Positions 95-22,889 of a stretch of DNA of 25,143 bases are shown here, piece after piece. The translations under genes were made by a program, and so were the position numbers. Each line of letters opens with the position of its first letter. Within the stretch, counting starts at the first letter, position 1. The stretch spans positions 1 to 25,143 of the forward strand of contig JAABOA010000080.1 of assembly GCA_015680635.1 (NCBI GenBank), given 5' to 3'. Below the pieces are notes generated by a model that searched no databases, was not told the origin of the DNA, and was given only the letters and a program-made list of their open reading frames with translations. The stretch is from Lunasporangiospora selenospora (taxonomy: Eukaryota > Mortierellomycota > Mortierellomycetes > Mortierellales > Mortierellaceae).

Positions 95-3000
95 ATGTGG
101 AAGAGCAACATAGAAATGGCCTTCCCAGCACCACAGCTCTTCCAGTCCCAAGACACCGGCGTTGAGCTGATCATCGAGCATCATAATACTGATTCCAACA
201 CCTCCAGGCACGATAGCCGTCCGCCGGTGGCGATGATGACGAAGTCAGCATTAAAAACTGGAGGTCGTGTTCGGTGTCACTGGGGCATATTCTCCACGGC
301 GATTTCAACTTTGATTGCGACGGTAACTCGGAGAACCTGACGCAACGCATTGTTGAACTGCTTGACACTCAGCAACGTTCAATGGCAGATCTGGTCGAGA
401 TGCTGTAATCGGCAGTGCACAAGAAAACGTTGATCGTAAGTTACACCGCTGTGTCAATGTTAAAACTTGTAAGATGGTATCTAACTTTACCTTGCTTATT
501 CTATGGCACCAAAGGTTGTCTTGACCTGTATGAACTGCTCCCGGAAGGGTTCTTCGTCCCAGAGAAAGATTGATACCTTGATATATCTCCTATTCCCAAG
601 GAACTCCAAAAGATGATCGAGGACGGCAAAGAGGACTATCATCAAGATATTGTGTACTTGTTCTCACAAAATCACTTGTCAAAAATTGTCACCCAGTTTT
701 CTGGTCGCACGGTTGCCAAGGCCGTATCACCCTCGTCAGGTTTGACGGCAGCAGAGAATAGCCCTATCATCTCACCCAAGGACAGTGCAGACCACCCTCA
801 CTGGAGCAATCTTTCTTTTTACTGTCCAGTGAATCTGAAGAATGCCCATTGTTCTCGACAAAAGATGGTACGACGAGGCTTCAAGAAGCTCACCTTCGCC
901 AGAGTGCTACCATGATATCCAACATGTGGGAAGGAGTCGGATACCAAAAGCCTTGGCCACCTTTTGAGGTTTTTATTCAGGTATCATCTTGCACCGAACC
1001 GAGCAGCCAGTAACAAATCAAGTGCTTCCAAACATGCAAAGATGAAGAAAGAAAAAGAGGTAAAGAAGGAAATGCAGAGGAGGCAGTCAGGCCTGACAGT
1101 CTCCCACTGGCGATATACCATGAAGAAGGAGTGCGACCATCTGTGCGAAAGTCTTCAGAAGAGTCAGGAAATGGCCATCAGACGCTTTATTCTCAACATC
1201 AAACGACCGAACAACATGAAGCCTGCACCTGGTGACCATGACACTTCTGTAATTAGGCCATTGCCGCCGATGTCCGCCGTCGAAACATGCTTGACCAACA
1301 AGAGCTGGAAGAGTGGGACGAGCAAGAACTGAGTGATCTGGATGAAGAATATGAGCTCAAGATGCTTGAGTTAGACACTTCACAAGACCAGCTCATGGAT
1401 GTTGATGCACCAAGTATCCTGGCAAACCCGACCCCTGCAGACACAAAAGTCACGGAGCCAGATCGCAAACGCCTCGCGTCGGCTGACTACTCCCTTGAGC
1501 ATGTCCGTGAATCAGCTTTTGAAGACAAGGATTTTACCGACAAAGAGCTTTCCGTAGTAATGAGTATCGTTAATTGCCTCCGGCCCTATGTCCCTAGGCG
1601 GTACAAAGCTCCAGACGAAGAAAATTACCGTCAATATACTCGATATAATGCACTCGACGCGCCTCTGATCCTAATATCAAATGCTATACTTGGACTATTG
1701 GGGCATAAGGCTTACACACGCAAGATTTGCCCGCACATGGCGACAGGAAGACTTCATGGCCTTCTTCTAGGCGCACCACAGCTTTTCGAACCCCTATGTA
1801 ACAAGAAGCCATGCCATTTTGATATTTTTGACGTCCGGGACCAGCCTCTCACCAATGGGAAGGATGTCACAAGCCCAGAATCGAACAAGGCCCGGGTGTT
1901 CAAATCGTTCATTGATTGGCACAAGTTAGAAAAGACCTGTGCAGAGGGCAATCGGTAAGTACCGAGGTTTTTTTGTTACTATGAGAACGCTCACTTGTTA
2001 AGGCTGGTCCAATTTAACTTACACTCTTTCTCTCTCTCATTGTAGCATGGTGTATATCAACAAAGGAATGGTTCAACTTCCTGGACCGCAGATGTCTGCT
2101 GGCACACGGCAACCTGTCGTCAGCGCATATGAAAACAAAATCAAGGCTACTAGAGGCACTGCAGACACTGGTCGTTGGAAGCGTGCATCCTTGCAATGCG
2201 GTCTCACGAAGGAGGAGGTTAAAGCCAAGATTGACGCTGCAAAAGTCGCATGCAATGATCTAAAGAATACAATGGATGATCCAAGAAAGGTCGTTCGCAC
2301 CTTGCGGAGACGTTGCACTGTCTCCATACGCGTATTTAGACAGAATGCACAAGGAGAGTATTGTCACCGACTCTGATTGCTTAAAGAACAACAGCATCAA
2401 CTGCGGATCGAAGAGCAAAAGCTCAAGAAGCTGGAGGACGCATATGCACAAGCGAAAAAGGGTTTGAATTTTTGGTCCCGGATGCTCACCGGAGCCAAGA
2501 GTACTGCTTGGAACTCTTCTAAAGCAAGACTGCGCCAATTCTCACCATCCCGACATGGAGCCACAGTCGAGCAGAGGACACACCTCAAAGCATCGGTCCC
2601 ACTAACCTGGCGTCATCACACACGACAAAGTCTCAAACAGGAAGGACTCGAGTGGTGGCCACCTGGGCCGAAGATCCTGGGCTAGTCAAGATGTCGGAAA
2701 ACTTATCAGTGACCATTCCCGAAATCCAGGCTGCAGTGAACCGCTTCCACGTTTTGGAAAGTAAGTTTATGCAAAGAAAATACTTCAATGGGTTTGCTTT
2801 GCCAATTTCAAGCCCATTCTCATTCTATTTTCTTCACCATTTAGGTCTTGAGGACAGTGATGTTGATCTTCCACTACCTCAGCCAAGAACTCAGGAGGAG
2901 AAAAAGCAGATCCGGATGGAGGCAAGGGCGTTGAAGTTGCCAGACACCATCACCATCACCGCCCGACAACTGAACGAGGTGTCAAGGACCCGAAAACTCG

Positions 3001-3599
3001 TCCAAGTCCGACAGGACCTCTTGAAACACAAGAAGAATGAGCATGTAAAACAGGCACTGGACAGCATATCGACTGCAGATGCATCGTTTGCAAACGCCTC
3101 GACAATCAGTGCTGTGGATACTGCCCAATCAGCCAGGGTATCGGTAACGGCGCCATTGCGCGATTTTAACCAGACCCGATCTCTCATCAAGGCCAAGAAG
3201 ACTCTGCCAATTTTCTCTAGAAGAGTCCAAGCAGCGCTCTGCAGTACAGTTCGGCGTCAAGCAGCTGAACGTGTCATCCAGTCGCTACCACCACAGGCAC
3301 ATGGTGTGGCTTCGGTCGACAAAGACAGCGGTTACTGCAGCCGTTGTTGCCGGTTTGAGTTTCAGAAAAACTCATCGACAAGGTTCTGCCACCCAGACTA
3401 CTGCACGAAGACCCAGCCTGACGTGCGATATGTCGGATTTGTAGGTGCGGTGGGATCTGCCGTCGGATCACGCTTGGGAGGCCACGCCCACAGAGGGGGT
3501 AAAAAGATCCGCGCTGAGCACAGACAGCACGGTGTGGTGTGTATCACGGATGAATTTATGACCTCGAAAACCTGTCATTTATGTTTTGCAGAGATGTGA
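95..3599 (+). pseudogene. Decayed, 3'-truncated Fanzor-type (TnpB-like, RuvC) nuclease gene
   Basis: Fanzors are eukaryotic TnpB relatives, RNA-guided DNA nucleases usually carried by transposons. Coding pieces follow one another on the plus strand: 95-230, 232-435, 515-915, 838-888 and 912-1010 in other frames, 964-1250, 1257-1954, 2046-2290, 2276-2375, 2377-2520 and 2523-3596. Two introns are clean: 1955-2045 (GTAAGT..TTGTAG, joins CG|C in frame) and 2761-2844 (GTAAGT..TTTAG). Diagnostic parts are a RuvC-I-like segment with A-E-D-P-G-L-V (Asp codon 2673-2675) and a C-terminal block with G-x-V-G-S-R-L-G-G-H, then D-E-F-M-T-S-K-T-C-H-L-C (about 3435-3590). The second CxxC of the zinc ribbon and the last RuvC Asp are missing because the frame stops at 3597-3599. 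In-frame stops at 406, 571 and 1254 and at least six frameshifts rule out a working protein. Family assignment is from motif recall; an IS607-type TnpB relative is the main alternative. Confidence 0.68.
1955..2045 (+). other. Intron preserved inside the Fanzor relic
   Basis: A 91-nt intron with donor GTAAGT at 1955 and a pyrimidine-rich acceptor ending TTGTAG at 2045. Removing it joins CG with C to give Arg and continues the reading frame into M-V-Y-I-N-K-G. Its preservation shows that the gene was once spliced in a eukaryotic host and is not a recent bacterial import. A second one of 84 nt lies at 2761-2844; being a multiple of three without a stop, it can also be read through. Confidence 0.75.
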
Positions 3600-5092
3600 C
3601 TGAATCCTCTGCCAACGATCAAGGGACTCACTACCCAAATCCAGGCCACCCATCCTCAATTAAACGTAAAGATCGGATCCATCTGGAACAGGCTCAGGGA
3701 GTTTTTCACCTCTGGCGATGCCGCTTCTTTCTCGGGTATCGACCAGATAGCCGATATTCAGACCCTCGCTCAGAGATTCCAGGCCGAACCATCGATTGAG
3801 GACAACCAGCCCGCCCTATCTCAAGCTAACAAGGCGCCTGAGTTAGCCGCCTCTAGTACTTCCAGCACTAGTGTACCTATTCCTGCTTCAAGTGCCCAAA
3901 CCCCCAAGTTCGGTACGGCAAGTGGTAGTGGAAGCAGTGGAAGCAGTGGAAGCAGCAGCAGCAGCACTGGTACTTTGTCTCAAAGAGGGATCGTGGCGAT
4001 GAAGGCTGAGTTCAATCGCAACTTTACCTCTTTCCGTGGCGAAGCCTGGAAACTCTCATCTGGCGCCTGTTTAGATGATATTGTTGCGGAGTATGTGCAA
4101 AGAGATGTCATTACATTCATTTGTCATCGATGATCCGGCCGTTGTCCTCGCTCTAGTTTCGGATCCTGAGGATAGGACTGTCTTGGAGGACGTTCTCGTA
4201 AAGCAAGAACGCACTAACCTAGTGAATACCAATGAACAGAACTACCTTCGGTGCTTTGATAAAGAGCCTGCCAAGATCAAGGAGATGCTTGCACAAGGAT
4301 GGCATCATGTTAACGAGGAGGATGACCAACTTCCTGATGAAGCTTTCCGTGAGGCGGCTCATATAGCCTTGCTGCACTTGCATGTGGTATATCGAAGCAC
4401 ACAGTTCAGGCTACCAGAAGCAGCCTCAGAGTCTTTCTACCTGCAGACTCTCTGGAGGTTTCTCAATGCCCTAGTTCTATGTGATGAGATGCTCAGCTTT
4501 CGGCCCGCGGAGGCACACTCACAGGCTTCCGCCCTACGCAAGAACAGGGATCGCAGGTTGGAAGGCTCTGCAAAGCAGGCTGTTGGTCGAGAAGTCGATG
4601 GCCTTGTTGTGGCCAACAAGACCCTCCTCGAGCTCTGCGTTCTTGAGGCTGCACGAAAGGATCGGGGTCCCAATGGATACCAAGGCCCTATCGGATACGC
4701 GAAAACTGGCAAAAGTACTCAAAGACACTCTCGACGCCATTTGTGCTAAGGCCTGTACTGATATCAGCTCCCATCTGGCTGTTTATGGCGTTCGTATCGC
4801 TAGTCCGTCTATAACGTTTTACAGCATGCGAAAGTGCCCAGGACGACTGTACCAAATGGTAAATGACGGGTCTGTATCCTTCCCTGTACAGTGGGACCAA
4901 TCCACCACAATCACGATCTTGACCATTATTGCCTCAGTGCTGGCTCTCCGAGGACGCGTCTCCGAAATGGCAAAGAAGATCACAAAATGGACGTCCTTGT
5001 CCTCTGAACTCCTCAATACTTCAAATTGCCCCAACATGCCCCCGACATTGACCACACCACCAGGCTCACCCCGTCTCACATCTCGCCCGTAA
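3600..5092 (+). pseudogene. Copy 1 of a repeated family with nuclease-like D...E motif, frameshifted, 5' end missing
   Basis: The sense frame starts abruptly at 3600 (L-N-P-L-P-T-I-K-G) with a stop codon directly upstream and no ATG, so the N-terminus is missing. It runs through a Ser/Gly linker (about 3910-3975) to a stop at 4132. The frame moves at about 4098, where 11 nt present in copy 2 are absent, and continues from 4100 to 4749. It moves again by an extra base at 4675-4678 and finishes at 5092. The C-terminal half contains G-R-E-V-D-G-L-V followed by L-E-L-C-V-L-E-A-A-R-K, a D...E-x3-K layout that recalls PD-(D/E)XK nuclease folds in multicopy Mucoromycota and Mortierella proteins. That link, and a possible relation to Crinkler-type proteins, is inference. 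The last part (R-G-R-V-S-E-M-A-K) looks like a natural C-terminus. Confidence 0.55.
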
Positions 5093-5450: not shown

Positions 5451-5573
5451 CAAATGAAGAGGCCCCCGTCACCCAAGGCGAAAACAGCCGCAGCCAGGCG
5501 GAGACTCACGGTCACCACATCCTTCTCAAATAAGACAGCTCTGATTGCTGCACCTCCATGAAAGTCATAGACA

Positions 5574-6058
5574 GGTCATATGAAGAGACAGGCAGCGCCC
5601 AGGCTACACCTATGCGCCTCTTATGGACCCAAGGAGCAAACAGATGTATTGATCAGGATCAACAGCACCATCCCACTATCCTTGAAGTGATATGGATCTC
5701 AGCTATTCCTAGCGAGAGGTGAATCCAAGCGATGAGGTCATATTGAGGAATACTCTCTGCTTGCCATCACCTTTCCTCATGGACCCACGAGTCTGATGGA
5801 GAAAAGACTACACGAATTGCAACACCACCATGGACAAGATGGCAAAGTATCTTGCCATGGAGAGGCCATATGGAGAGACAGGCAGCGCCCAGGCTTCACC
5901 TATGTGCCTCTCATGGACCCAAGGAGCAATTGAATGCAGCAGATCAAATCCAGCACCACCCCACCCAAAGAGATTCACACTTTGACTGAGGTGAGGTCAA
6001 ATGGAGAGACAGGCAGCGCCCAGGCTACACCTTTGTGCCTCTCATGGACCCAAGGAGG
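5574..6058 (+). repeat. Tandem array, period about 130-160 bp, with a conserved 66-bp core
   Basis: Four units start at 5574, 5736, 5864 and 5995 with GGTCATAT-like sequence, giving spacings of 162, 128 and 131 bp. Units 1, 3 and 4 share a near-identical core of about 66 bp (5574-5639, 5864-5929, 5995-6058) that includes GGCAGCGCCCAGGC unchanged and ends CTYATGGACCCAAGGAG. Unit 2 is degraded and keeps only the start and CTCATGGACCCA. Between the cores the spacers are diverged, with a weak shared CAACACCACCA-like patch. No open frame spans the array. It is a minisatellite or the inside of an unidentified repeat element. Confidence 0.75.
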
Positions 6059-6201
6059 ACCCTGCTCGCATCGATTTGAAATCCGTACACAACGCCATGC
6101 TTGTTCTCCATCATCACCATTACCTTGAGCACGCACACCAGGACTAGAAATCGCCTTGATTGGTGAGTAGGGAAGACTTTTTTTTTTTTTGGTCAGGCAC
6201 T

Positions 6202-7131: not shown

Positions 7132-7171
7132 CCATGAGTTGAAGCTTTTTTGGACTCATGGGAAACACTAC

Positions 7172-8306
7172 ACCAGTGTACCCATTCCCATTTCAAGTGC
7201 CCAAACCCCCAAGTCCACTACGGCAGGTATCAGTGGAAGCAGTGGAAGCGGTGGAAGCGGTGGAAGCAGCAGCAGTACTAGCACTTGTCTAAAAGAGGGA
7301 TCGTGACGACGAAGGCCGAGTTCAATCACAACTTTACCTCCTTCCGTAGCGAAGCCTGGAAACCCCTGACTGGCGCCTGCGTAGATGACATTGTTGCGGA
7401 GTATGTGCGTGTATTTAGCAAAGAGATGTCACTACATTCTTTTGTCATCGATAATCCGGCCGCTGTCCTCGCTCTAGTTTGGATCCCGAGGATAGGACTG
7501 TCCTGGGAGACGTATTCAAAAAGCAAGAACGCACAAACTTAGCGAACACTGTGGTAGACCAGAGCTATTGTAGACACAGAAATAGGAACCTGAAAGAGCC
7601 TGTGGAGATGTTATACGAGGTCTGCAGTTAACCTGTATACAGCATTCTATTCCTCTGCGGGCTTTTCAGGAACAGTATAAATACTGACCCCAGCCCTTGA
7701 ATAAACTACATCATACTAAATCCTTCCTTTTTACCATAATCACCAATGAGCAAGACTACCTTCGGCGCTTTGATAAGAAATCCGCCAAAAAAAACATCAA
7801 GGAGATGCTTGCACGAGGATGGCATCATGAAGCTCTCCGTGAGGCGGCTCATATAGCCTTGCTGCACTTGCATGTGGTATATCGAAGCACACAGTTCAGG
7901 CTACCAGAAGCAGCCTCAGAGTCTTTCTACCTGCAGACTCTCTGGAGGTTTCTCAATGCCCTAGTTCTATGTGATGAGATGCTCAGCTTTCGGCCCGCGG
8001 AGGCACACTCACAGGCTTCCGCCCTACGCAAGAACAGGGATCGCAGGTTGGAAGGCTCTGCAAAGCAGGCTGTTGGTCGAAAAGTCGATGGCCTTATTGT
8101 GGCCAACAAGACCCTCCTCGAGCTCTGCGTTCTTGAGGCTGCACGAAAGGATCCGGGTCCCAATGGATACCAAGGCCCTATCGGATACGCGAAAACTGAC
8201 AAAAGTACTCAAAGATACTTTCGACGCCATTTGTGCTAAGGCCTGTACTGATATCAGCTCCCATCTGGCTGTTAATGGCGTTCGTATCGCTAGTCCGTCT
8301 ATAACG
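7172..8306 (+). pseudogene. Copy 2 of the D...E family, split by a solo LTR and frameshifted
   Basis: It is homologous to 3870-4816 and begins inside the Ser/Gly linker, so everything upstream is missing. The frame from 7285 includes the 11 nt lost in copy 1 (V-R-V-F-S-K-E-M-S), then shifts at 7480, where one C present in copy 1 is gone. A solo LTR interrupts it at 7550-7738. Downstream it lacks a 30-nt in-frame block (V-N-E-E-D-D-Q-L-P-D in copy 1) after H-H at about 7828. It carries the same extra base at 8165-8168 as copy 1. Homology stops dead at 8306, 276 bp before the equivalent of the copy 1 stop. No functional product is possible. Function as for copy 1: unknown, with a D...E-x3-K motif. 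Confidence 0.6.
7550..7738 (+). mobile_element. Solo LTR (189 bp) of a retrotransposon
   Basis: It is found by comparing the two gene copies: copy 1 runs straight through where copy 2 has 189 extra bases. The insert begins TGTGGTA and ends TACCATA, terminal inverted repeats with one mismatch (the usual TG..CA with the final C now T). It is flanked by AACAC (7545-7549) and ATCAC (7739-7743), a 5-bp target-site duplication with one change. Inside, TATAAATA (7676-7683) lies 17 bp before AATAAA (7700-7705), the expected promoter and poly(A) signal, which set the orientation as plus. No internal retrotransposon sequence is present, so the rest was lost by LTR-LTR recombination. LTR size and duplication length fit both Ty1 and Ty3 types. 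Confidence 0.75.
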
Positions 8307-10394: not shown

Positions 10395-13300
10395 ATGGCA
10401 TCTTATGTGCGGCCATTGGAAGAGCTGCAGCCCACAGCTCTGGCCATCAACTTGGGCACCAATATCGTCCTCTCCCTCGCCACTCTTGGTGCCTTTTGTT
10501 GGCTCCGACCAAGAAATGGAGGTAAAGTCGCGAGTCTCATGAAAAAGTGGCCAGTTGCCCCAGTGACAACCCCAGCACCTCCTCTCACCCATCTATTCCA
10601 TCTTTTATCCGAGGAAGAGTTGTCCTTGCCAAAGGGGGGGGGGGGCACTATTTATTTACCTCCGAGGCGGCCAAAAGGCCCTGTTGAAACGAATGATCTG
10701 GGTAGTATAATTATTATTCCTGCATGTCACTCAAATTGCTATCCTATCCTGGTGATCCTCCTCTTATCATAGTGATTTATGCACGCAAATACAGGACCTC
10801 ACCTGCTGAGTATGTAACCGTCTGTTGTGTAGCCATCCCTTTTTCTCTATTTGGATCAACTCTTTAATTCTGCTTTCCCCATCTAACCACGCTGTACTCC
10901 CTTTCTACTCGTGACCAACAAATGACAGAAAGCGTGCACCTAAGCTCGCTGCTGGCTACTTCTCTTGGATGGGTCCAGTCTGGAGTTGTCCTGACAAAGT
11001 GCTTGTGGATAAAATAGGACTGGATGCCGTCGTCTTTATTCGCTTCATCCGCATGTGCAGGCACCTTTTCCTTGTCTTGGCCATCCTAGGCTGTGGTGGG
11101 CTCATCCCTGTAAATGTGATTGCGACAATTCGGGGGAACGGAGGAGTCGCTCCTGCGGACAAGATTTCCATGCTGACAATGTCCGGTATTAAGGATATCC
11201 TTTGGATTTGGGCCCATACCGGGGCCATTTGGTGCTTCTCCCTGATCATGATGGCTTTCATCTACCACGGCTACGACACATTTCTCAAATTCAGGATTCA
11301 GTACTTTGAAAGCGACTCGTACCAAGAGGATATGGCCTCTAGAACTGTCATGTTGGCTGGATTGCCTGGCTCATTGCAGAGCGATGAAAAGCTGATGAAG
11401 TTCATGAACAGCCTTGGACTCGCAGACAAGCCAATCCAGGCAATGGTTGGACGCAAGGTCGAGAAACTTCCAGAGCTTTTGGAGGAGCACAAAAAAATGG
11501 TGACCGCTCTCGAGAAGGTCTTGACAAAGTACTACGCTGGTAAGTGCATCCTATTTAATCATTTTGGGATCGCAATCCGGAAAAGAAAATTAAAAAAAAA
11601 TAGCCTAACCTAGAGTGTCAACTTTAGATCCGAGCAACCCGCCAGCACAAAGACCCACCGTTACAATTGCAACAGGATTGTGTGGCTCTAACAAGGTGGA
11701 TGCTGTCGACTATTACTCTGAACGAATTGAGCAAATCACGGATCAGATTGAGAATGTGCGCCAGGAAGTCTCAAAGTCCCAGACGACCAACTATGCCTTT
11801 GTCTCCTACGCTACCATCCCGGCTGCTCACCGTGTAGCAAAACTGTTGTCCAACCCAGTGATATTCCGTACACGGTCCAAGATGGTCGACCCACCAGAGT
11901 TGTTCCTTTCGCCTGTACCCAAGGACGTCATTTGGTTCAACGCCGCCAACCCAAAATCAGTCCGCAACTCTCGCCGTCTGATTGTGAATGGTCTTTTCAT
12001 CATTGGATCTCTGTTATTCTTCATCCCTATGGCCTCACTGACGACACTTGCCAAGCTGGACACAATTACTGGTCTGGTTCCTCAGAGCGCAGATTTCTTT
12101 AACAAAAACCCGGTGATTACGGGCATTGTCCAATCCTTGCTTCCTATCCTGTTTATGGATGTTCTTTTCCTGATCATCCGCAAGTTTATTGTTTACCTGG
12201 CTTTCCTACAAGGAAATATCACCAAATCTTCAGCCGATCGTTCAACACTCTCAAAGTTCTATCTGTTCTTCACCATCAACAACTTGCTCATCTTTGGACT
12301 TTCAGCGACTATTACCGGATTCTTTGGCAACATCAAAAGCATCCTCGTTGAAACTTCGATCTCTTCCGCCTCATGGGACGCGATCAAGAAATACGTTAGC
12401 GAGCAAGACAATATTGTCGAGCTTTTGGCAGAGCAGATTATCAAGTTCAGCTTGTTCTGGGTCAACTACATCTCGCTCCGCAACTTTGGTGCTCTCTTGG
12501 ACTTGTTCCAGATCGTGAACCTCTTTTTCCACTGGCTCAAAAGGACAGTTACTCCTCGAGAAAAGCAGGCTTTGGATGAAGCAGAAGTCTTTGAGTTTCC
12601 AACATTCTTTTCGGCCCATCTTTTCTTGTTGACAGTTGCATTGCTCTATTCAGTCATTGCCCCACTGGTCCTCTTTTTTTCCGCCGTCTATTTTGCACTG
12701 GCCTCACTCGTTTACAAGTACCAGCTGATGTATGTTTTCCAAACCAAGATTGAGACTGGAGGGCGTCTCTTCCGCGTCGTCTTCAATCGCCTCATTGCAG
12801 CTCTGATACTCTTCCAAGTGGTTATGATTGGAGTCCTGAATCTCAAGGCGGCCCATAAGCAATCGATTGCCGTTATTCCACTGCCAATCATCGCAATTCT
12901 TTTCAAGATCTTTTTACGCAATCACTTTGATCCAAGGATCGACTTTTACGACTATGGCTCAGATCACCACCGGCGCCACAGTGCTCAACTGAGCTCCAGC
13001 TTCGAGAACCCGGCTTTGAGAGCAAAAATGATCACAGCCCTTGTCCCAGACTCGGCCAAGAAGCTCTTGAGCAACAAGGTCTTGAACGGTGGGAACGATC
13101 ACGCAGATCGTGGAAGAGGACGGAGCGGAAGCCGGAGTGGGAACAAGAACAAGAGTCGCGCTGGATCGCGCAAGGGCTCATCATCCCATGGACGCAAGTA
13201 TGCTGCAGACGATGATATGCCGCAAAATGAAATGGAGACCATTGAGATGAACCACTTTTCCAAAGCCGACATCCCTCGACCCGCTTATGCAAAGACCCTT

Positions 13301-14437
13301 GAAACCAAGCCTAGTTATGACAGTCTGCGTGGTCAGCGTCACCAGCAAAATTCGACACCAACCCCTGCCTACGATGAGTATTCTTCGCCACATATTCTTG
13401 GGGATGATCTCGCGGATAGCTATTATGATGACCAGAAGGAGAGCTTGACAAAGTCGGTGGCGAGGAACTATGATGACACCTATCGGACCCCTTCGCCCTC
13501 AACCCAGTCTCAATCTTCACAATCACGCTACCAACACCAGCAGAAGCCTTCCTATGGAAGCAACGTCAGAGTGTATGGAGAACAAGACATGACCTCGTTC
13601 ATCGCTGGGCGATATAGAGCTGACAAGACCAACGATATTTATTCGTACAGCAGCCGAAACAACAGCAGTGCCAATGTGGGCCATGGCTCTGTCGATCGAG
13701 GCGATGCTACCAACGAGAGCGCTAGTATTGGAGCCACTCCTTCCAAACCCTCCTATAGGGAAATGGCCAAGATGTATCAATCCGAAGGCTACAAGACCAC
13801 TGGAAAGACAACCCAGATTGAAGAGAGGAATGCTTTGCAAGCACTCCATCTCCCAAGACCCAAGCACAATCGAAGACAGCGACAGGACACTGCTACGCAG
13901 CAACAGAGCCTGGATGATCCCTTCCAAGAACCCGCTCTGCAACAGCAGCTGCAACAAGAACAGGTTCAGCAGCAGCAGCAGCAGCAACAACAACAACAGT
14001 CGTTGGAAGACGATGCTTACGCTCATTACGATGATCTGTTGCGCACTCCACAGCCGGCGACGACGACAATTAATTATGAGCCCACACCTCCTTCGGGACC
14101 TACTCCGCAGATCGCGCAGGCGGTGCGGAGCACTCCACAGGCACGCCCCCACTCTCCCTCAATGCGGTCCGAGTCCTCGCCAGCATTGTCCTCGGTTGGG
14201 TCCCCATCCTCGTACGCTCCCAGTACACCATCCACCTCACCTCAGGCCTACAAGCCCATGTCGCGCGCTCAGACCCAAGGAAATCTCAACGCCTATGGGA
14301 ACAATGCTGGGACGGGAATGCAGAGTAAATTAGATACTCGAGGAGGCGAGTATGGGCAGACACATGCGTCTTCTGCAAATACTAGGTATCAACAAGGGGC
14401 AACCAACTATAACAACCATAATGGGTCCTACATGTAG
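10395..14437 (+). CDS. CSC1/TMEM63/OSCA-family (DUF221) stress-gated cation channel
   Basis: Four exons: 10395-10521, 10773-10809, 10929-11539 and 11628-14437. Introns of 251, 119 and 88 nt have GTAAAG, GTATGT and GTAAGT donors and AG acceptors; all joins keep frame and give 1194 residues. The N-terminal membrane part includes L-R-P-R-N-G-V-I-Y-A-R-K-Y and G-Y-F-S-W, typical of fungal RSN1/CSC1 proteins, with membrane spans to about residue 170. A cytosolic PHM7-type region follows (about 190-370, V-M-L-A-G-L-P and Y-A-F-V-S-Y). The RSN1-7TM pore region lies at about 375-690 and ends near N-H-F-D-P-R. Relatives are osmo- or mechanosensitive cation channels of the plasma membrane or endomembranes. 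The tail of about 500 residues (RS/basic patch about 750-780, polyQ about 1036-1050, Ser/Pro-rich end) is long for the family. Orthology to CSC1, PHM7 or RSN1 is not resolved. Confidence 0.9.
13959..14000 (+). repeat. CAG/CAA tract coding for polyglutamine in the channel tail
   Basis: After Q-E-Q-V, CAG codons and then CAA codons encode about eleven consecutive Gln residues, in a wider Gln-rich stretch starting near 13935. The mix of CAG and CAA makes it less slippage-prone than a pure tract. On the opposite strand it yields a spurious Leu-rich frame. Confidence 0.85.
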
Positions 14438-14909: not shown

Positions 14910-17900
14910 TTAGACAACGCTGTACTCGGCTGGCGTGAGAATGCTCTGCTTCGAGTACACCACCTCGGATCCATCCCCAACTTGTGTGACCGAGAGAACC
15001 TATTTAAAAAAAGAAGGAAAAGAGTGAGTGATCTGTTTTGACTCTGAGAAAACTTTGGCCTTGGGTCTAACCAAGTTGGCCACCCAATGAAGCATCACCC
15101 CATAAAGATTTTTTTTTTTAAAAAAAAAAAAAACTTACATCAACATCGCAGATGAGACGCTCGCTCTCAAACTGAACAGAGACGGGGAAGAAGCTCTCCG
15201 TGTCCTCTCCCTGGCAGTTGAATTCCAAAGATCCAGAGGGGTTTGAAGAGTCAATCGAGGGCAATTGCCAGATCAATACTCCTTGCTGGCGATCCACCAT
15301 GTATTCTCCGTCAATTTCTCCGACCGTGGGGCTAGCACCTTGGCTAATAGTCGGGAACCCAGCACCAAAGGTTAGAGGGAGAGGGAAAAAAGCACATGTC
15401 AGCTCAAACACATTTTCTGGTAGCTCCTTCAAAGGGAAAAAGCATGAATGAGCCTTCAAGTAAAATCAAAAGGCCTTACGGAAGAGGAATGATAATGTTG
15501 ATGTTCTTGAATGACATTTCTGTGTTCTCCAACTGGTACTCGATATTAACATCACTCGATCCATCTCCAGCGGGGGATGGCCAGCAGTTGACTATTTAAA
15601 TCATACAAAAAAAGGGAGGCATCAGCATTTTAGCAATACGCCTCGGTTATAAAGAATAAGGCCCATTGCAACAAAAAGAAAAAAAGATGCTGCTTACTGG
15701 AAAGAGGGATGGAGCTCTCATCCTTGCTGATAAATCTCCAGCGTAATACTCCTGTGGGTGTGTTCAATGGGAACTCCTTGGAAGAGTCTCTGAAGGCAAT
15801 CGTCTTTTCGTTGTTGAATAGCACCTTGTTCACGTTGGGGTGGGTCTAGAGATCGGTTATCGAAGTGAAGAAAAAAAAAGTTAGTCTCCAGTCCAATGTT
15901 TTCTCCATTCAAACTCTTGAGTTCTCCAAATTATCTACCTTGAACTGGATGCTGGGATCGTCAAGGTGGTTGACAGAAAGGCTAATCTTTGCAAATGCTG
16001 GGTCAGAGACGCGAAGCATCAAGTCACCCTTAACCTCCATGTTCTCGAGTCCACCGTCTCTGTTGGCAACCACAGTGATCTTTTCTTCAATTTGAACATG
16101 AACGCTCTCCATATGAATATCTGACACAACAGGTGCAGCAGCAATGGCGGGACTAAATGTCGGCTGAGAGGCACCAGTAGAGGATGGTGTACGTGCCATC
16201 TCGACTTCTGAACGAAGAGACTCGAACAGATCTGTGTTGTTCTGTTTGCGTCCAAGCTGCATACCGCGAGCCTTTGTTGCAGGAGCCCTTGGAGCGGCAC
16301 TACAAAGAAAAGTCCGAAAAATAAAAAGTAGATGTCAGAACCAAAGTGTCCCTGAATACAGTGTTCTCCAATAAGTAATGGTACTGTAACAGGCGGTATT
16401 GGGTATTGGGGGGGGGGTGCCTTACTTGAATCTGGAGTCGTCCGAGGGAGTGGGCGAGTCGAAGCCCTGGTTTCCTCCCATGCCACCCATGTTGTTCGAG
16501 CCACCCATGCCACCCATGCCACCCATACCACCCATGCTCGATGACTGTCCGCTGAAACCCATAGGGCTGCCATATCCTCCCATGCCTCCCATGCCGCCCA
16601 TACCTCCCATACCTCCCATGCCGCCCATGCCGCCCATCTGCTTCCTCTGTTCTTTCCGCTGATCGTCCAAAAGTTTGGCCTGTCTCTTGAGGACCTCCTT
16701 TGCTTCGCGCTCCTTGTTCTATTGTTACGAAATTTGATCCAACGCACGTTCATGTCAATTTTTTTCTTATCTTTCTAGCGTATTTCCAAAATAGATAATA
16801 GCAAAAAAAGGGGCGTGGAGGGGTCGCTTATTACCTTCTCGATCATCTCTTGGATCTTCTCTTCGTGACTCTCCATCTCGGAAATAGAGCCGATCTGAGC
16901 CAAGTTGACATTCTCGCGGTATCCCAGAGAAATGATCTCGTCAAACGAACTCAACAGCTCGAATGCATTCCTGTCAATCTCACGCGCGTCCGTTGGCCTG
17001 CATGTCGAAGAAACCACGCGAGACACCAACTGCAAGGTGTCAATATCTGACAACATTAAAAATTGAAATTGTAAAATCAAGGGCCATTGTGTTGCGGTTG
17101 TCGTGGGATGTTGTCATGGCCAAACACAAGCCCGTGGTGGATCCGGTTGGTGAGATGGAAATATCACGGGAGAAGATAAGAGAGACAGAGACAAAGAGAG
17201 AGAGAGCGAGAGAGAGAGAGAGAGAGAGAGAGGAGAGTTAATATAGTGGCAATACGTCGATATTTCTTAAAAGTTGGAGATCAGCACATCCTGGTTGCTA
17301 CAATGGCTCAGTCCATCAAAGGGAGGATCGCTTTACCTTGCAAGATATTGGACTGCTTGTTGGTAATCAGGACAATGAACAGCTCCTCGAGTGGTTGGTA
17401 TACATATCGGACATGCTCCGTCTCGATGGTGGTGTGCTGTTGACCCGAGCTAGTCAGCTTTGGGAAGGAGGCGATCAAACCCTCGATACGGGCACGGGTC
17501 ATTTCGCGAAACTGGCGCGAAATCAGAGCTGAATAGAGGTTGCATTCCACAGGATAGGGTACATGTGAGTGCCTGGACCAACAGCAGTGATGTGCATGTA
17601 GACGAATGCATCTTTCATTGGAGATGCAAAAAGTATATCTTACCTTTGCCGCTCTTGGTGCAAATGGAGATGGCGAGAACAACCTAATGTTTCGGAAAGG
17701 ATGGAAACAGTGGCATCGTCAGCATGAACATGCAAGAATGTGATCCAGCGAGATGTAGATTTGGTCCTGTGGATGGAAGGATGAGAGATTCCCAGTCTTG
17801 ATGGTCATCCTCTCCAATCAAGATATGATGGCGACAATGGTAGAGATCGCGTCACTGTAGTAAATCCACTGCTGTCTTGAGTCTAAATCTCTCAAAAGAT

Positions 17901-19261: not shown

Positions 19262-22200
19262 TCATTCAAATTCTATGTGGCATTCTTCTAATATCTCCTT
19301 TACACTCTCCTGAAGTTCCATTTTTGCGGTATCCGACAAGCTAGAACTACTAAGTATGATTCGTTGTAAACATTTGGCTCCAGATCTTGGCTCCTCGTCG
19401 TATTCTTCAGATATTTCCATCGATAATGAAGGTGAAGCTCCAGGTAACACTGTCCAGCCATCCTCTTCATTTTCGCCCTGTACATACTCCAGTAACCGTG
19501 AAATTTGCCCAGACTCAAAGTTTGACCCTACAAAGCTCAATTCGTTCAAATCTGTGAAAGGGATCGCCTCGAGTATCATATTCCATGAGCGCATTGTCAA
19601 CATGAACTGGTGAAGGTATAGCCGTCTCAGATGAGAGCATCCCTGGAGAATACGAGCCAAGTTATCTGTACCACTTGACTCAAGGTGTTGTGAGTCAAGG
19701 ACAGTGGCAGTCTCGGAAGCAGACTCGGGGTGGTAGATCACGACCAATTCTTCCAAGGACCCCAGCATTCTTTTAACATGCCCCATGGCAAACTGATCCT
19801 GCTCTAGTGCTTCCCAGAGTTTAGAGAGCCATCCTTCCGTATTGAGACTAGTGATCCAGAGAGTTCTCATCCGCTCCAAGTACTTCATGATAAACCCAAC
19901 ACGCGCAGAGCCTTCCTCGCCATCGTACGATAAATCGACTGCAAGCTCAAGTCTACCTAGCTCATCCAATTGATCTACTACATCTCCCAAAAGGTCAAGG
20001 TGTCTCGACGTAGGTGTGTTCGACATCGCCACCGAGAGTTGCTCAAGTCCAGATATCCTTTCGTCTCCGTGCTTTGCAGTGAGCTTGCCCTGGCGACGTC
20101 TGCTCACCGCTAAAACTCCCGCTAGTTCCTCGAGTACATCGCACTCTACATTGTTCGGAATGACCACTTTCTTTAAGGAGCTAGGGTACTCGATCTCACC
20201 AAGGGAAGAGAGAAGTTCGCCCAAATGGTTTGTGCTGATTTCTGTCAAAAAAATATCCGCATTGATCGATAACTCGGGCTTGTAGTTGAATTTAGCCATC
20301 AGGGAGTTGCAGGATGGATCCTCAAGACGTAATACGAGCGCCTGCGTGGACGACTTTTGAGAAACTACATCTGCAATCTGTCCATATATCGTTCCAAACC
20401 CACATGCTGGACAATTAATTGCCACTTCCGACAACACTTTGGCATCCAAGATGAGAGTAGAAAAAAAGGTTGGCAACCCCCAGCGTTGATCGACATTCAA
20501 TTCCGATAGCTGTGATAGTCGAATTGAGCGCAACTTGTTGAGGTTCGACGTGGTAAAAGCCGAGCTTTTTAGAGAGCTCGTATCGACATCCACGGACAAA
20601 ATTATCTTGTGATCTTTCCCATCGTTGCTAGGCCCAAACACAATCAAACCTCTAGAGTCGCCAGCAAAGCCCTCATCGGCGCTCTTCACAACCTCGAATC
20701 GGGTCAATGCCTCATGCAATCGAGCCGAGTTGAGCAAGTATTTGTAGACGGAGCTAAGCATCGTCTTCACATCTCGCACACGCAGCTTAAAGTCTTGCAA
20801 ATTCGGATAGACCCTCAGAAGGGCTTCGCAGTAAGACTCCTGTCTTGACCAGCTCGACACTCCAAGATCCAGTTTCTGTAGCTTATCTTGCCTTTTTCCT
20901 GTACTATCCTCAATGATAAAGTCATCATAGCCTGTCTGCGTGAATTCGGTGAGTTTCTGGTTGCTCATGATCTCGGTAATGATTTGGTTTCGATCCTTTG
21001 GTGATATTGAGACTGTTTGTGTTGAGTACGAGAGTGAAGCTGATGACTGAGACCAGTCAAGCTGTAGAATGACCACGGATGACCTTACAATGGCGTCCTG
21101 GAGCGCCTTCAATGTCGCCAGTTCGATATCCCATGGCAATACGATTTGAAGCTGACGAATCATGGTTGTCTCCCTGAGAAGAACAAAAAATTGATTGGAG
21201 AGTCCTGGTGTCCTAAGAGCGAGGTGGATCGATGCTGATTGAGGATTGTAGACGCCTCCGCTCATTTTAACTGCGTCGATTAGCCAGTCCGTAACAAGCC
21301 TGCTCTTGGTCACCCGAAAGTGTTCAAGACACACAAATTGATGCCGATGGACGTCGTCGATGATGCGGCGAGTTTTTCCCTGATCCTGTTTGGATTGTTG
21401 CTCGAGTGTCGGGAGTTCAATGGGCCAGTCATTCTCGTCTGTGGAGAGCCTCCTGTCGTCGTCAAGGCAAGTCGAAAGTAACTTCAAGTCAGCGCCGTTG
21501 ATTGGTTTCTTGTTCTTTAGACCAGGATAGGAATTGATCAGGAGTTTGGACCTCTCCAGCCATGCTCTTTGGGAATCGTCACAATGAACTAGCAATCGAT
21601 TTATCATCTGTTCAACGTGGCACGCAAACACAGCCATCACCTTTGCTAGTGAGCTCTTTCGTAGTAGAATACCCTTGGAAAATTTGGGAAGGTGCAATAA
21701 AAAGTCCCTCGACCTGTGTTGACCACTCGGCGCCTTGGGCTGCACGCCGCCTGTGCAGATGAAGTACAGTCGAAAGCTGCAGTTTACTGGATTTCCATCG
21801 AGCTTGTCATGAAGGAAGATAAGATATTCGGAAAAGAAGTACCCGCCATACTCAAAGATCATTGGGGGGGCAGTCTTTGATGAGCCCTGCTGTGTCGCCT
21901 CTGGCTGTTGCTGCAACGACTGCTGTTGGTCAGACTGCCCTTGGTCTCGGGCGCAGGCTTCCATCGAGGGAGTCGGTTGCCCCTGAGGACTGATTTGGTC
22001 ATCTTGCTGCGGGGGGTCAGCATGGCCGGCTATAAACTCAAACTGATCATGGCTCTGTGCTGCGCTCCTAAAAGAAAGAAAGGAAAAAGAAAATGCATAC
22101 GGTTTGTAAAACGACTTGCAGTCTCTTGGTTTCATTAGCTGAGCAATACTTGACGACTTACAGCTTTTCTTCCAGGGAACCTCCGTCACAATCTGCTGGG

Positions 22201-22889
22201 ACATTTAAACCTGGGATGCTTGTTAGATATCCTTGACTTTTGGGATAGGGCAAGTAAGCCTGGCTATCCACCATGCCAGAGTAACCAAGGTTACGGATCG
22301 CCAATTCAAGGTCTGATGGATTCATGGGATTAGAAGGGGGTAAGCCGAGGTAGGGATATGCTCCGTATGAAGGCAAAGGTCCAAATATAGGAAGTTGGGA
22401 CTGGATGGGCGTTGGAGCAAAGAAGGGCAAGGACTGTGGAGAAAAGGCCAAAGGTGACGGCAAAACAGGCTGTGGTATTGGTATTGAAAAGGTAGAGAAG
22501 GAAGACTCCGAGGAGGAAATTCCAATAGGGTAGAAAGGATACTGAGGAAATCCAGAAACGGAAGGAGTCGACCCCATTGGAAGCACAAGAGGCATATTTG
22601 AATCGACAATGTGTCTCATGGTTCCTGTGGGGACTGCCAGCTTGTTGCTTTGAGATGCTCCACCGTACAAAGGGTTTATCCCAGTTGCAATTGGTTGAAT
22701 GCGAGGATTCGATTGGGACTGACCCCGAAGTGAAGCGAATTTCGCATGGTCTAGTTCGGAAAAAACAGTTGCTGATGCCGTGGAATTGAGATTAGGTCCA
22801 GGTTGAGCTTTTCGATGTGAAGATTGGCGGGAGTAGCTGCTTTCTGTTCTGCGACGATGTTTGGGGCGTTTTCCTCGTTCTGGAGACAT
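19262..22889 (-). CDS. Large leucine-rich-repeat-like protein, function unknown
   Basis: Two exons, 22889-22162 and 22067-19262, around a 94-nt intron (GTAAGT..TTTTAG) that joins CT|G in frame; 1177 residues. The ATG at 22889-22887 is the first in frame; the longer frame begins with GTG. Residues 1-243 are disordered and Pro/Ser/Tyr rich, with a basic K-R-P-K-H-R-R-R stretch at 7-14 that could be a nuclear localisation signal. A Gln-rich patch lies at about 265-300. From about 310 a folded-looking region starts (F-E-Y-G-G-Y-F-F-S-E-Y). The last 400 residues show irregular leucine-rich repeats (L-R-S-I-R-L-S-Q-L-S-E-L, L-R-R-L-Y-L-H-Q-F) and an acidic C-terminus. I associate this architecture with a large unnamed Mortierellaceae family; no catalytic motif is visible. 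Confidence 0.82.

What the first reader, a model, noticed from the sequence alone, without database searches (positions are those of the whole stretch)
95..3599. Relic of a Fanzor (eukaryotic TnpB-like) nuclease gene with introns
Seen: coding pieces in order on one strand, two clean introns, an A-E-D-P-G-L-V segment at the place expected for RuvC-I, then G-S-R-L-G-G-H and D-E-F-M-T-S-K-T-C-H-L-C. Known: Fanzors are RNA-guided nucleases spread by transposons in fungi, algae and viruses; their zinc ribbon follows a (D/N)E-x-x-(T/S)S motif. Inference: an active, spliced Fanzor once worked in this lineage. The Glu in D-E-F may be the relocated catalytic Glu described for this superfamily.
Basis: partly seen in the sequence, partly recalled or inferred. 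Interest (0 to 1): 0.75.

Follow-up and report, generated by a model that had tools for sequence, protein, structure and literature searches.

The report
Dead Fanzor-like nuclease gene, Mortierellaceae fungus
A broken gene in a soil fungus turns out to belong to an unnamed family of large proteins that carry the active-site signature of Fanzor, the RNA-guided DNA cutter of eukaryotes, so this copy is dead but at least one relative with the signature complete exists in a sister fungus.

Summary
Window 232-3587 aligns in four ordered blocks with residues 439-1488 of a Mortierella alpina protein (P0002, EC968_007570). The window is the locus of Lunasporangiospora selenospora hypothetical protein BGW38_010177: 1,121 of its 1,122 residues lie in exact window segments. 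The copy is dead: four in-frame stops, two unexplained frame changes, and a break at about 3597 that removes the second zinc-ribbon half and last catalytic Asp and joins it to an unrelated gene. Both introns are supported. P0002 carries the full published TnpB/Fanzor motif with the relocated Glu six residues before CxxC; 0 of 20,000 shuffles reproduce it. Profile comparisons with TnpB/Fanzor are in register (E 1.2e-4, 1.5e-4, 0.0069), roughly 20- to 1,700-fold better than their reversed controls, yet HH probabilities stay at 4-65%. Differences from Fanzor1: P0002 has 1,695 residues, 107 more than SpuFz1 between the first two catalytic residues, an extra conserved C-x2-C...H-x3-C cluster, no TDG motif, no Pfam hit over cut-off. 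I call it a divergent Fanzor-like lineage, a new variant of a known kind; named hits are all from Mortierellaceae. RNA guidance and cleavage are inferred; structure prediction failed.

The parts
232..1215 (+). N-terminal coding pieces (frame 1) homologous to P0002 439-738; in-frame stops at 406, 571, 913
   Evidence: tblastn E 2.6e-40; stops
1257..1954 (+). open coding piece (frame 3), homologous to P0002 840-987 from 1488 onward
   Evidence: tblastn E 2.5e-39, 49% identity
1955..2045 (+). intron 1, 91 nt, GTAAGT...TAG
   Evidence: not in P0002
2046..2508 (+). coding piece (frame 1), in its relative P0003 predicted as a long helical hairpin; in-frame stop TGA at 2374; frame change 2509-2534
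2535..2760 (+). coding piece (frame 3) with RuvC-I motif TWAEDPG (2661-2681; Asp codon 2673-2675)
   Evidence: DPG in 5 of the 6 homologues, other than the window's own gene model, that cover the site
2761..2844 (+). intron 2, 84 nt, GTAAGT...TAG; fragment P0007 reads on from the same place
2845..3596 (+). coding piece with helical linker, extra C-x2-C...H-x3-C cluster (3336-3404), Gly 36 residues before the Glu, relocated Glu (codon 3552-3554) and first zinc pair CHLC (3573-3584)
3597..3606 (+). break: stop codon, end of Fanzor-like similarity; second zinc pair and RuvC-III Asp missing
3600..5092 (+). unrelated gene family; the annotated model BGW38_010177 runs into it (to 4746); second, partial copy at 7166-8306
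   Evidence: no Pfam family over cut-off for two window frames and two longer own-genome frames

Best explanation
A dead copy of a gene from a divergent TnpB/Fanzor-type RuvC nuclease family of Mortierellaceae fungi. In relatives where it is complete, the protein probably binds a guide RNA made beside its own gene and cuts matching DNA with a split RuvC site: Asp of DPG, Glu six residues before the zinc ribbon, Asp of RD after it. Shown here: homology, motif order and spacing, introns, decay. Inferred from family knowledge: RNA guidance, cleavage, and spread with transposons. The window copy cannot work: frame broken, third catalytic residue and half the zinc ribbon gone.
For: Homology to P0002 over 1,050 residues (E 3.4e-145, 41% identity) and 10 further proteins found by profile. 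Published motif D-X(125,275)-[TS][TS]XX-C4-X(5,50)-RD (PMC3627910, abstract and section 6) met by P0002; D-to-TS gap 267 in both P0002 and the spliced window; 0 of 20,000 shuffles. Relocated Glu (ExxxxxxCxxC; PMC10711439, passages) in 8 of 14 sequences examined; the 6 without are 5 fragments that do not contain the segment and the gene model that skips it. Gly 36 before that Glu, the spacing of Fanzor1 G500/E536 in PMC3627910, invariant in the 10 rows of A6, which I had chosen. hhalign: family against five own-genome canonical Fanzor-like pieces E 1.2e-4 (reversed 0.19, 0.21); against 26 viral-contig TnpBs E 0.0069 (reversed 0.15, 0.25); against 73 pooled sequences E 1.5e-4 (reversed 0.011, 0.033); the last two in register through RD.
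Against: No Pfam family over cut-off for 13 of 13 proteins, PF07282 only 15.0 bits against 26.3 in P0002; NCBIfam 0 hits for the 3 proteins tried; PHROGs best E 0.031, unknown function, for 10 members. hhalign probabilities only 4-65%; against two bacterial TnpBs that have the relocated Glu only E 0.011 (reversed 0.15, 0.35). No relevant PDB sequence hit. AlphaFold models poor (mean pLDDT 52.7, 49.3), no Foldseek match at E <= 0.001. TDG motif absent. Unusual zinc ribbon (C-x2-C-x27-C-x4-C). P0003 lacks DPG; by eye, own-genome copies C381 and C107 read DYG and no Asp there.
Confidence: 0.82

Rival explanations
1. The family descends from a Fanzor but is domesticated: the DNA-cutting fold is kept for another job (chromatin or RNA binding) and guide RNA use is lost.
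For: Few copies seen (5 other places in the 8.2 Mb held, one of them weak); a long N-terminal region without Pfam match in P0002; divergence from known profiles.
Against: All three catalytic positions and four ribbon cysteines are kept in P0002; the own-genome copies that I read are broken, as for decaying mobile elements.
Confidence: 0.2
2. An unrelated nuclease or zinc-ribbon protein whose motifs resemble Fanzor by convergence.
For: No family over cut-off in the libraries scanned; weak profile probabilities; failed structure prediction.
Against: Order, spacing and relocated Glu all fit; 0 of 20,000 shuffles; profile register runs through TS..C..C to RD with reversed controls worse.
Confidence: 0.13
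3. The locus is a working gene as annotated (BGW38_010177, 1,122 aa) with a new fused domain.
For: A database gene model joins both halves in nine window segments.
Against: The model leaves out 3537-3671 with DEFMTSKTCHLC and other conserved coding stretches (323-600, 868-1256), skirts all four in-frame stops, and runs through a chimeric junction.
Confidence: 0.03

Closest known systems
Fanzor1 (SpuFz1 of Spizellomyces punctatus and relatives)
   Same: DPG at RuvC-I, Glu six residues before CxxC, Gly 36 before that Glu, TS motif, zinc ribbon then RD; in fungi
   Different: P0002 1,695 aa, 1,050 of them shared with the window, against about 600-800 for Fanzor1 in PMC11423790 (passage) and PMC10711439 (section 28); 265 residues from Asp to Glu against 158 in SpuFz1 (D383, E541; PMC10432273 passage); extra C-x2-C...H-x3-C cluster; C-x2-C-x27-C-x4-C ribbon; no TDG motif
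Canonical Fanzor-like loci of the same genome (PF07282; contigs C174, C125, C73, C45 over cut-off, C196 just below)
   Same: (N/D)E-x-x-TSKKCPxC core; same genome; some copies with stops (3 of 9 matches)
   Different: 4 of 9 matches pass the PF07282 cut-off; link to TnpB strong (E 8.4e-11); no extra cluster in 5 of 5 pieces, though two of these start too late to show it
Bacterial and phage TnpB
   Same: TS..CxxC...RD core in register
   Different: Of 55 viral-contig loci scanned, 26 gave a usable frame and 26 of 26 have F, W or T at the relocated-Glu place; 21 of 26 show D-(L/F)-G, 5 no such match

Membership tests
TnpB/Fanzor superfamily | D-X(125,275)-[TS]-[TS]-X-X-C4-X(5,50)-RD (PMC3627910) | tested here: met
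   Met in relative P0002, 0 of 20,000 shuffles; the window copy has only the part up to CxxC
Fanzor (1 and 2) | DPG at RuvC-I (PMC10711439) | tested here: met
   Window and 5 of 6 other homologues covering the site, the window's own gene model P0001 not counted; P0003 lacks it; by eye own-genome copies C381 DYG, C107 no Asp
Fanzor (1 and 2) | Catalytic Glu six residues before CxxC (PMC10711439) | tested here: met
   8 of 14 sequences examined; the other 6 do not contain the segment. Own-genome copy C90 has the Glu but not the Cys pair
Fanzor1 | Conserved Gly and Glu 36 residues apart (G500, E536; PMC3627910) | tested here: met
   Invariant in 10 of 10 rows of A6, rows chosen by me, copy C381 left out because it is broken there; P0002 residue E-36 is G
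Fanzor1 | TDG motif in the WED domain (PMC10711439, section 28) | tested here: not met
   Absent from 13 of 13 proteins, 3 of which (P0001-P0003) are long enough to judge, and from window frames up to 3600
Fanzor1 | Paired kinked REC2 helices and RuvC fold | tested here: inconclusive
TnpB/Fanzor superfamily | PF07282 zinc-ribbon domain | tested here: inconclusive
   P0002 15.0 bits, P0013 10.8 bits, the other 11 proteins none at E <= 1; cut-off 26.3
Fanzor2-like TnpB (search pattern of PMC10711439) | DPGx(120-160)ExxxxxxCxxCx(12,18)CxxCx(4,8)D | tested here: not met
   P0002 has 262 residues there, then C-x2-C-x27-C-x4-C-x11-RD
Fanzor | Guide RNA from the 3' end of the locus; RNA-guided DNA cleavage | not testable with these tools
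   3' end lost in the window; no DNA of the M. alpina locus and no transcripts at hand
Fanzor | Carried by a transposon with defined ends | tested here: inconclusive
   Copies C90 and C447 share 73-87% DNA identity over parts of the gene, no ends defined; the contig starts just before the relic

The most novel reading that the evidence does not exclude
Mortierellaceae fungi hold a separate class of Fanzor-type nuclease, over 1,000 residues long, with an enlarged RuvC segment that carries an additional zinc knuckle just before the second catalytic strand, a long helical hairpin before the first one and no TDG motif. It would be a third eukaryotic TnpB lineage that profile searches miss, complete in at least M. 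alpina and decaying in L. selenospora.
Probability: 0.35. Interest if true: 0.7.

Novelty: new variant of a known kind. Interest (0 to 1): 0.5.

Why it matters
It points to a lineage of eukaryotic TnpB-like nucleases that the Pfam, NCBIfam and PHROG models, as scanned here, do not recognise, with testable candidates in culturable soil fungi. If active, it would widen the known size and domain range of Fanzors and offer a new scaffold for RNA-guided cutting; if domesticated, it would be a eukaryotic counterpart to TnpB repurposing. It also shows an annotated hypothetical protein that is a pseudogene fused to a neighbour.

Full report
What the window is. A read-through of the broken gene, with X at the breaks, retrieved three proteins. 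P0001 is hypothetical protein BGW38_010177 of Lunasporangiospora selenospora (Mortierellaceae); 1,121 of its 1,122 residues lie in nine exact segments of the window, so the window is that locus. P0002 is hypothetical protein EC968_007570 of Mortierella alpina (1,695 aa, 41% identity, E 3.4e-145). P0003 is an unnamed 700-residue protein (source code lgn, which I take to be Logan). A profile search with six sequences added ten more; the named ones are from Modicella reniformis (2; Mortierellaceae), Mortierella antarctica and Mortierella sp. GBAus27b (Mortierella placed in Mortierellaceae from recall). Both searches scored only the roughly 8,000 candidates sharing most words, so distant relatives may be missed.

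The observation. tblastn of P0002 against the window gives four blocks in order on the + strand, together covering P0002 439-1488 and window 232-3587. The quoted motifs are at 2661-2681, 3465-3485 and 3549-3584. The two introns are 1955-2045 and 2761-2844, both GTAAGT...TAG; P0002 has no residues for either, and the fragment P0007 reads on from what looks, by eye, like the second donor. The copy is dead: in-frame stops at 406, 571, 913 and 2374, frame changes in 1216-1488 (an unrecognised intron is possible there) and 2509-2534, and a stop at 3597 just after the first zinc pair. What should follow, seen in P0002, P0004, P0006, P0011 and P0013 (second Cys pair, then RD), is missing; a tblastn of that tail from own-genome copy C90 finds nothing in the window.

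The break. From about 3600 begins another gene family, present as longer open frames elsewhere in this genome (531 and 587 aa) and as a second, partial copy at 7166-8306 of the window. The database gene model joins the relic to this gene and leaves out 3537-3671, with the DEFMTSKTCHLC stretch.

Is it a Fanzor? [quoted passage not shown] I read the abstract, outline and sections 5 and 6). P0002 meets it; the gap from Asp to TS is 267 residues both in P0002 and in the spliced window. In 20,000 shuffles of P0002 none met the motif; in 20,000 shuffles of the window piece none met DPG-x(120-275)-E..[TS][TS]..C..C, and 75 met the loosest form. Fanzors differ from most TnpBs by DPG and by a Glu six residues before the first CxxC (PMC10711439; passages and section 28). 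The Glu is present in 8 of 14 sequences examined, the other 6 not containing that segment. DPG is present in the window and in 5 of 6 other homologues that cover the place, leaving the window's own gene model aside. PMC3627910 also names a Gly and a Glu, 36 residues apart, as extremely conserved in Fanzor1; here both are invariant in the 10 rows that I aligned.

Profile evidence. Five canonical Fanzor-like pieces of the same genome all match Pfam PF07282 (5 of 5 at E <= 0.01, best 5.4e-13) and match 26 TnpBs from viral contigs at E 8.4e-11. The family under study is much further off: E 1.2e-4 to those five (6e-5 with the shorter alignment A6, no control run), 0.0069 to the 26 TnpBs, 0.011 to two bacterial TnpBs with the relocated Glu, and 1.5e-4 to 73 pooled sequences. 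The alignments run through TDE..TS..C..C and, for the 26 and the 73, on to RD in the right register. Reversed controls, in the same order: 0.19 and 0.21; 0.15 and 0.25; 0.15 and 0.35; 0.011 and 0.033. These are single-comparison E-values with HH probabilities of 4-65%: support, not proof. PF07282 itself reached only 15.0 bits in P0002 against a cut-off of 26.3.

What differs. From Asp to Glu there are 265 residues in P0002 against 158 in SpuFz1 (D383, E541; passage of PMC10432273). Part of the excess is a conserved C-x2-C-x(14-15)-H-x3-C cluster directly before the RuvC-II strand: found in 7 of 12 rows, absent in P0013, one Cys lost in copy C90, and not covered or cut short in P0005, P0009 and P0011; 0 of 5 canonical pieces have it, of which two begin too late to show it. 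Whether other published Fanzor1 proteins have such a cluster was not tested. The zinc ribbon of P0002 is C-x2-C-x27-C-x4-C with RD after eleven residues. The TDG motif named as characteristic of Fanzor1 is absent from 13 of 13 proteins, three of which are long enough to judge. P0002 has 1,695 residues, of which 1,050 are shared with the window; the papers give about 600-800 for Fanzor1 (PMC11423790 passage; PMC10711439 section 28). I therefore hold back from filing it as Fanzor1 proper.

Relatives in the same genome. The family has five other places in the 8.2 Mb held: C90, C447, C381, C107 and, weakly (E 3.9e-4), C122; such counts are lower bounds. Those that I read in three frames are broken. 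At the RuvC-I place, found by eye, C381 reads GTDYG and C107 lacks the Asp. C90 keeps the RD segment (GRDKSAAMAIA).

How it most likely works. Inferred for intact relatives: the helical N-terminal half and the part before RuvC-I hold a guide RNA transcribed across the 3' end of the gene; base pairing to DNA next to a short motif opens the RuvC pocket, where Asp (DPG), the relocated Glu and Asp (RD) cut the strands; repeated cutting of empty sites helps the element to persist. Only homology, motif geometry and decay are shown here.

In print. A search for Fanzor together with Mortierella gave 0 papers. With Mucoromycota (2024 on) none of the 15 papers listed of 46 holds that word; with Mortierellomycota none of the 7 listed of 7 holds both it and Fanzor1 (listings only). 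Table 1 of PMC3627910 names Rhizopus, Mucor and Phycomyces with Fanzor1 but no Mortierella. Most subscription papers are not in that library, and supplements were not searched.

Noticed in passing
window 3866-4816 and 7166-8306: A duplicate of an unnamed gene family in the window; one 300-base stretch is 99% identical while other stretches are 82-94%, as after local gene conversion. Longer open frames of 531 and 587 aa on contigs C307 and C87; no Pfam family over cut-off.
   Followed up: partly
L006-L011 (contigs C174, C125, C73, C45, C196, C10): A second, canonical Fanzor-like set in the same genome with PF07282 (4 of 9 matches over cut-off; 3 of 9 with a stop in the matched stretch); C174 keeps an open zinc-ribbon exon.
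   Followed up: partly
window 5566-6060: Three copies of a 74-base unit, the other two 91% and 82% identical to the first, spacing 290 and 131, between the duplicated genes.
   Followed up: no
window 10915-14437: Two consecutive long frames with RSN1/PHM7 channel domains (PF13967, PF14703, PF02714 over cut-off), probably one gene with intron(s).
   Followed up: partly
window 15912-17718, minus strand: Pieces of an adaptor-type coat subunit (PF00928 over cut-off in one of three pieces), by recall coatomer delta, with a Gly-Met-rich repeat tract at 16422-16718.
   Followed up: partly
window 19265-22204, minus strand: A 980-codon open frame without a Pfam family over cut-off.
   Followed up: no
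P0002 residues 1-440: A long N-terminal extension of the M. alpina protein without a Pfam match; it may be a fused neighbour in the gene model or a real extra domain.
   Followed up: no
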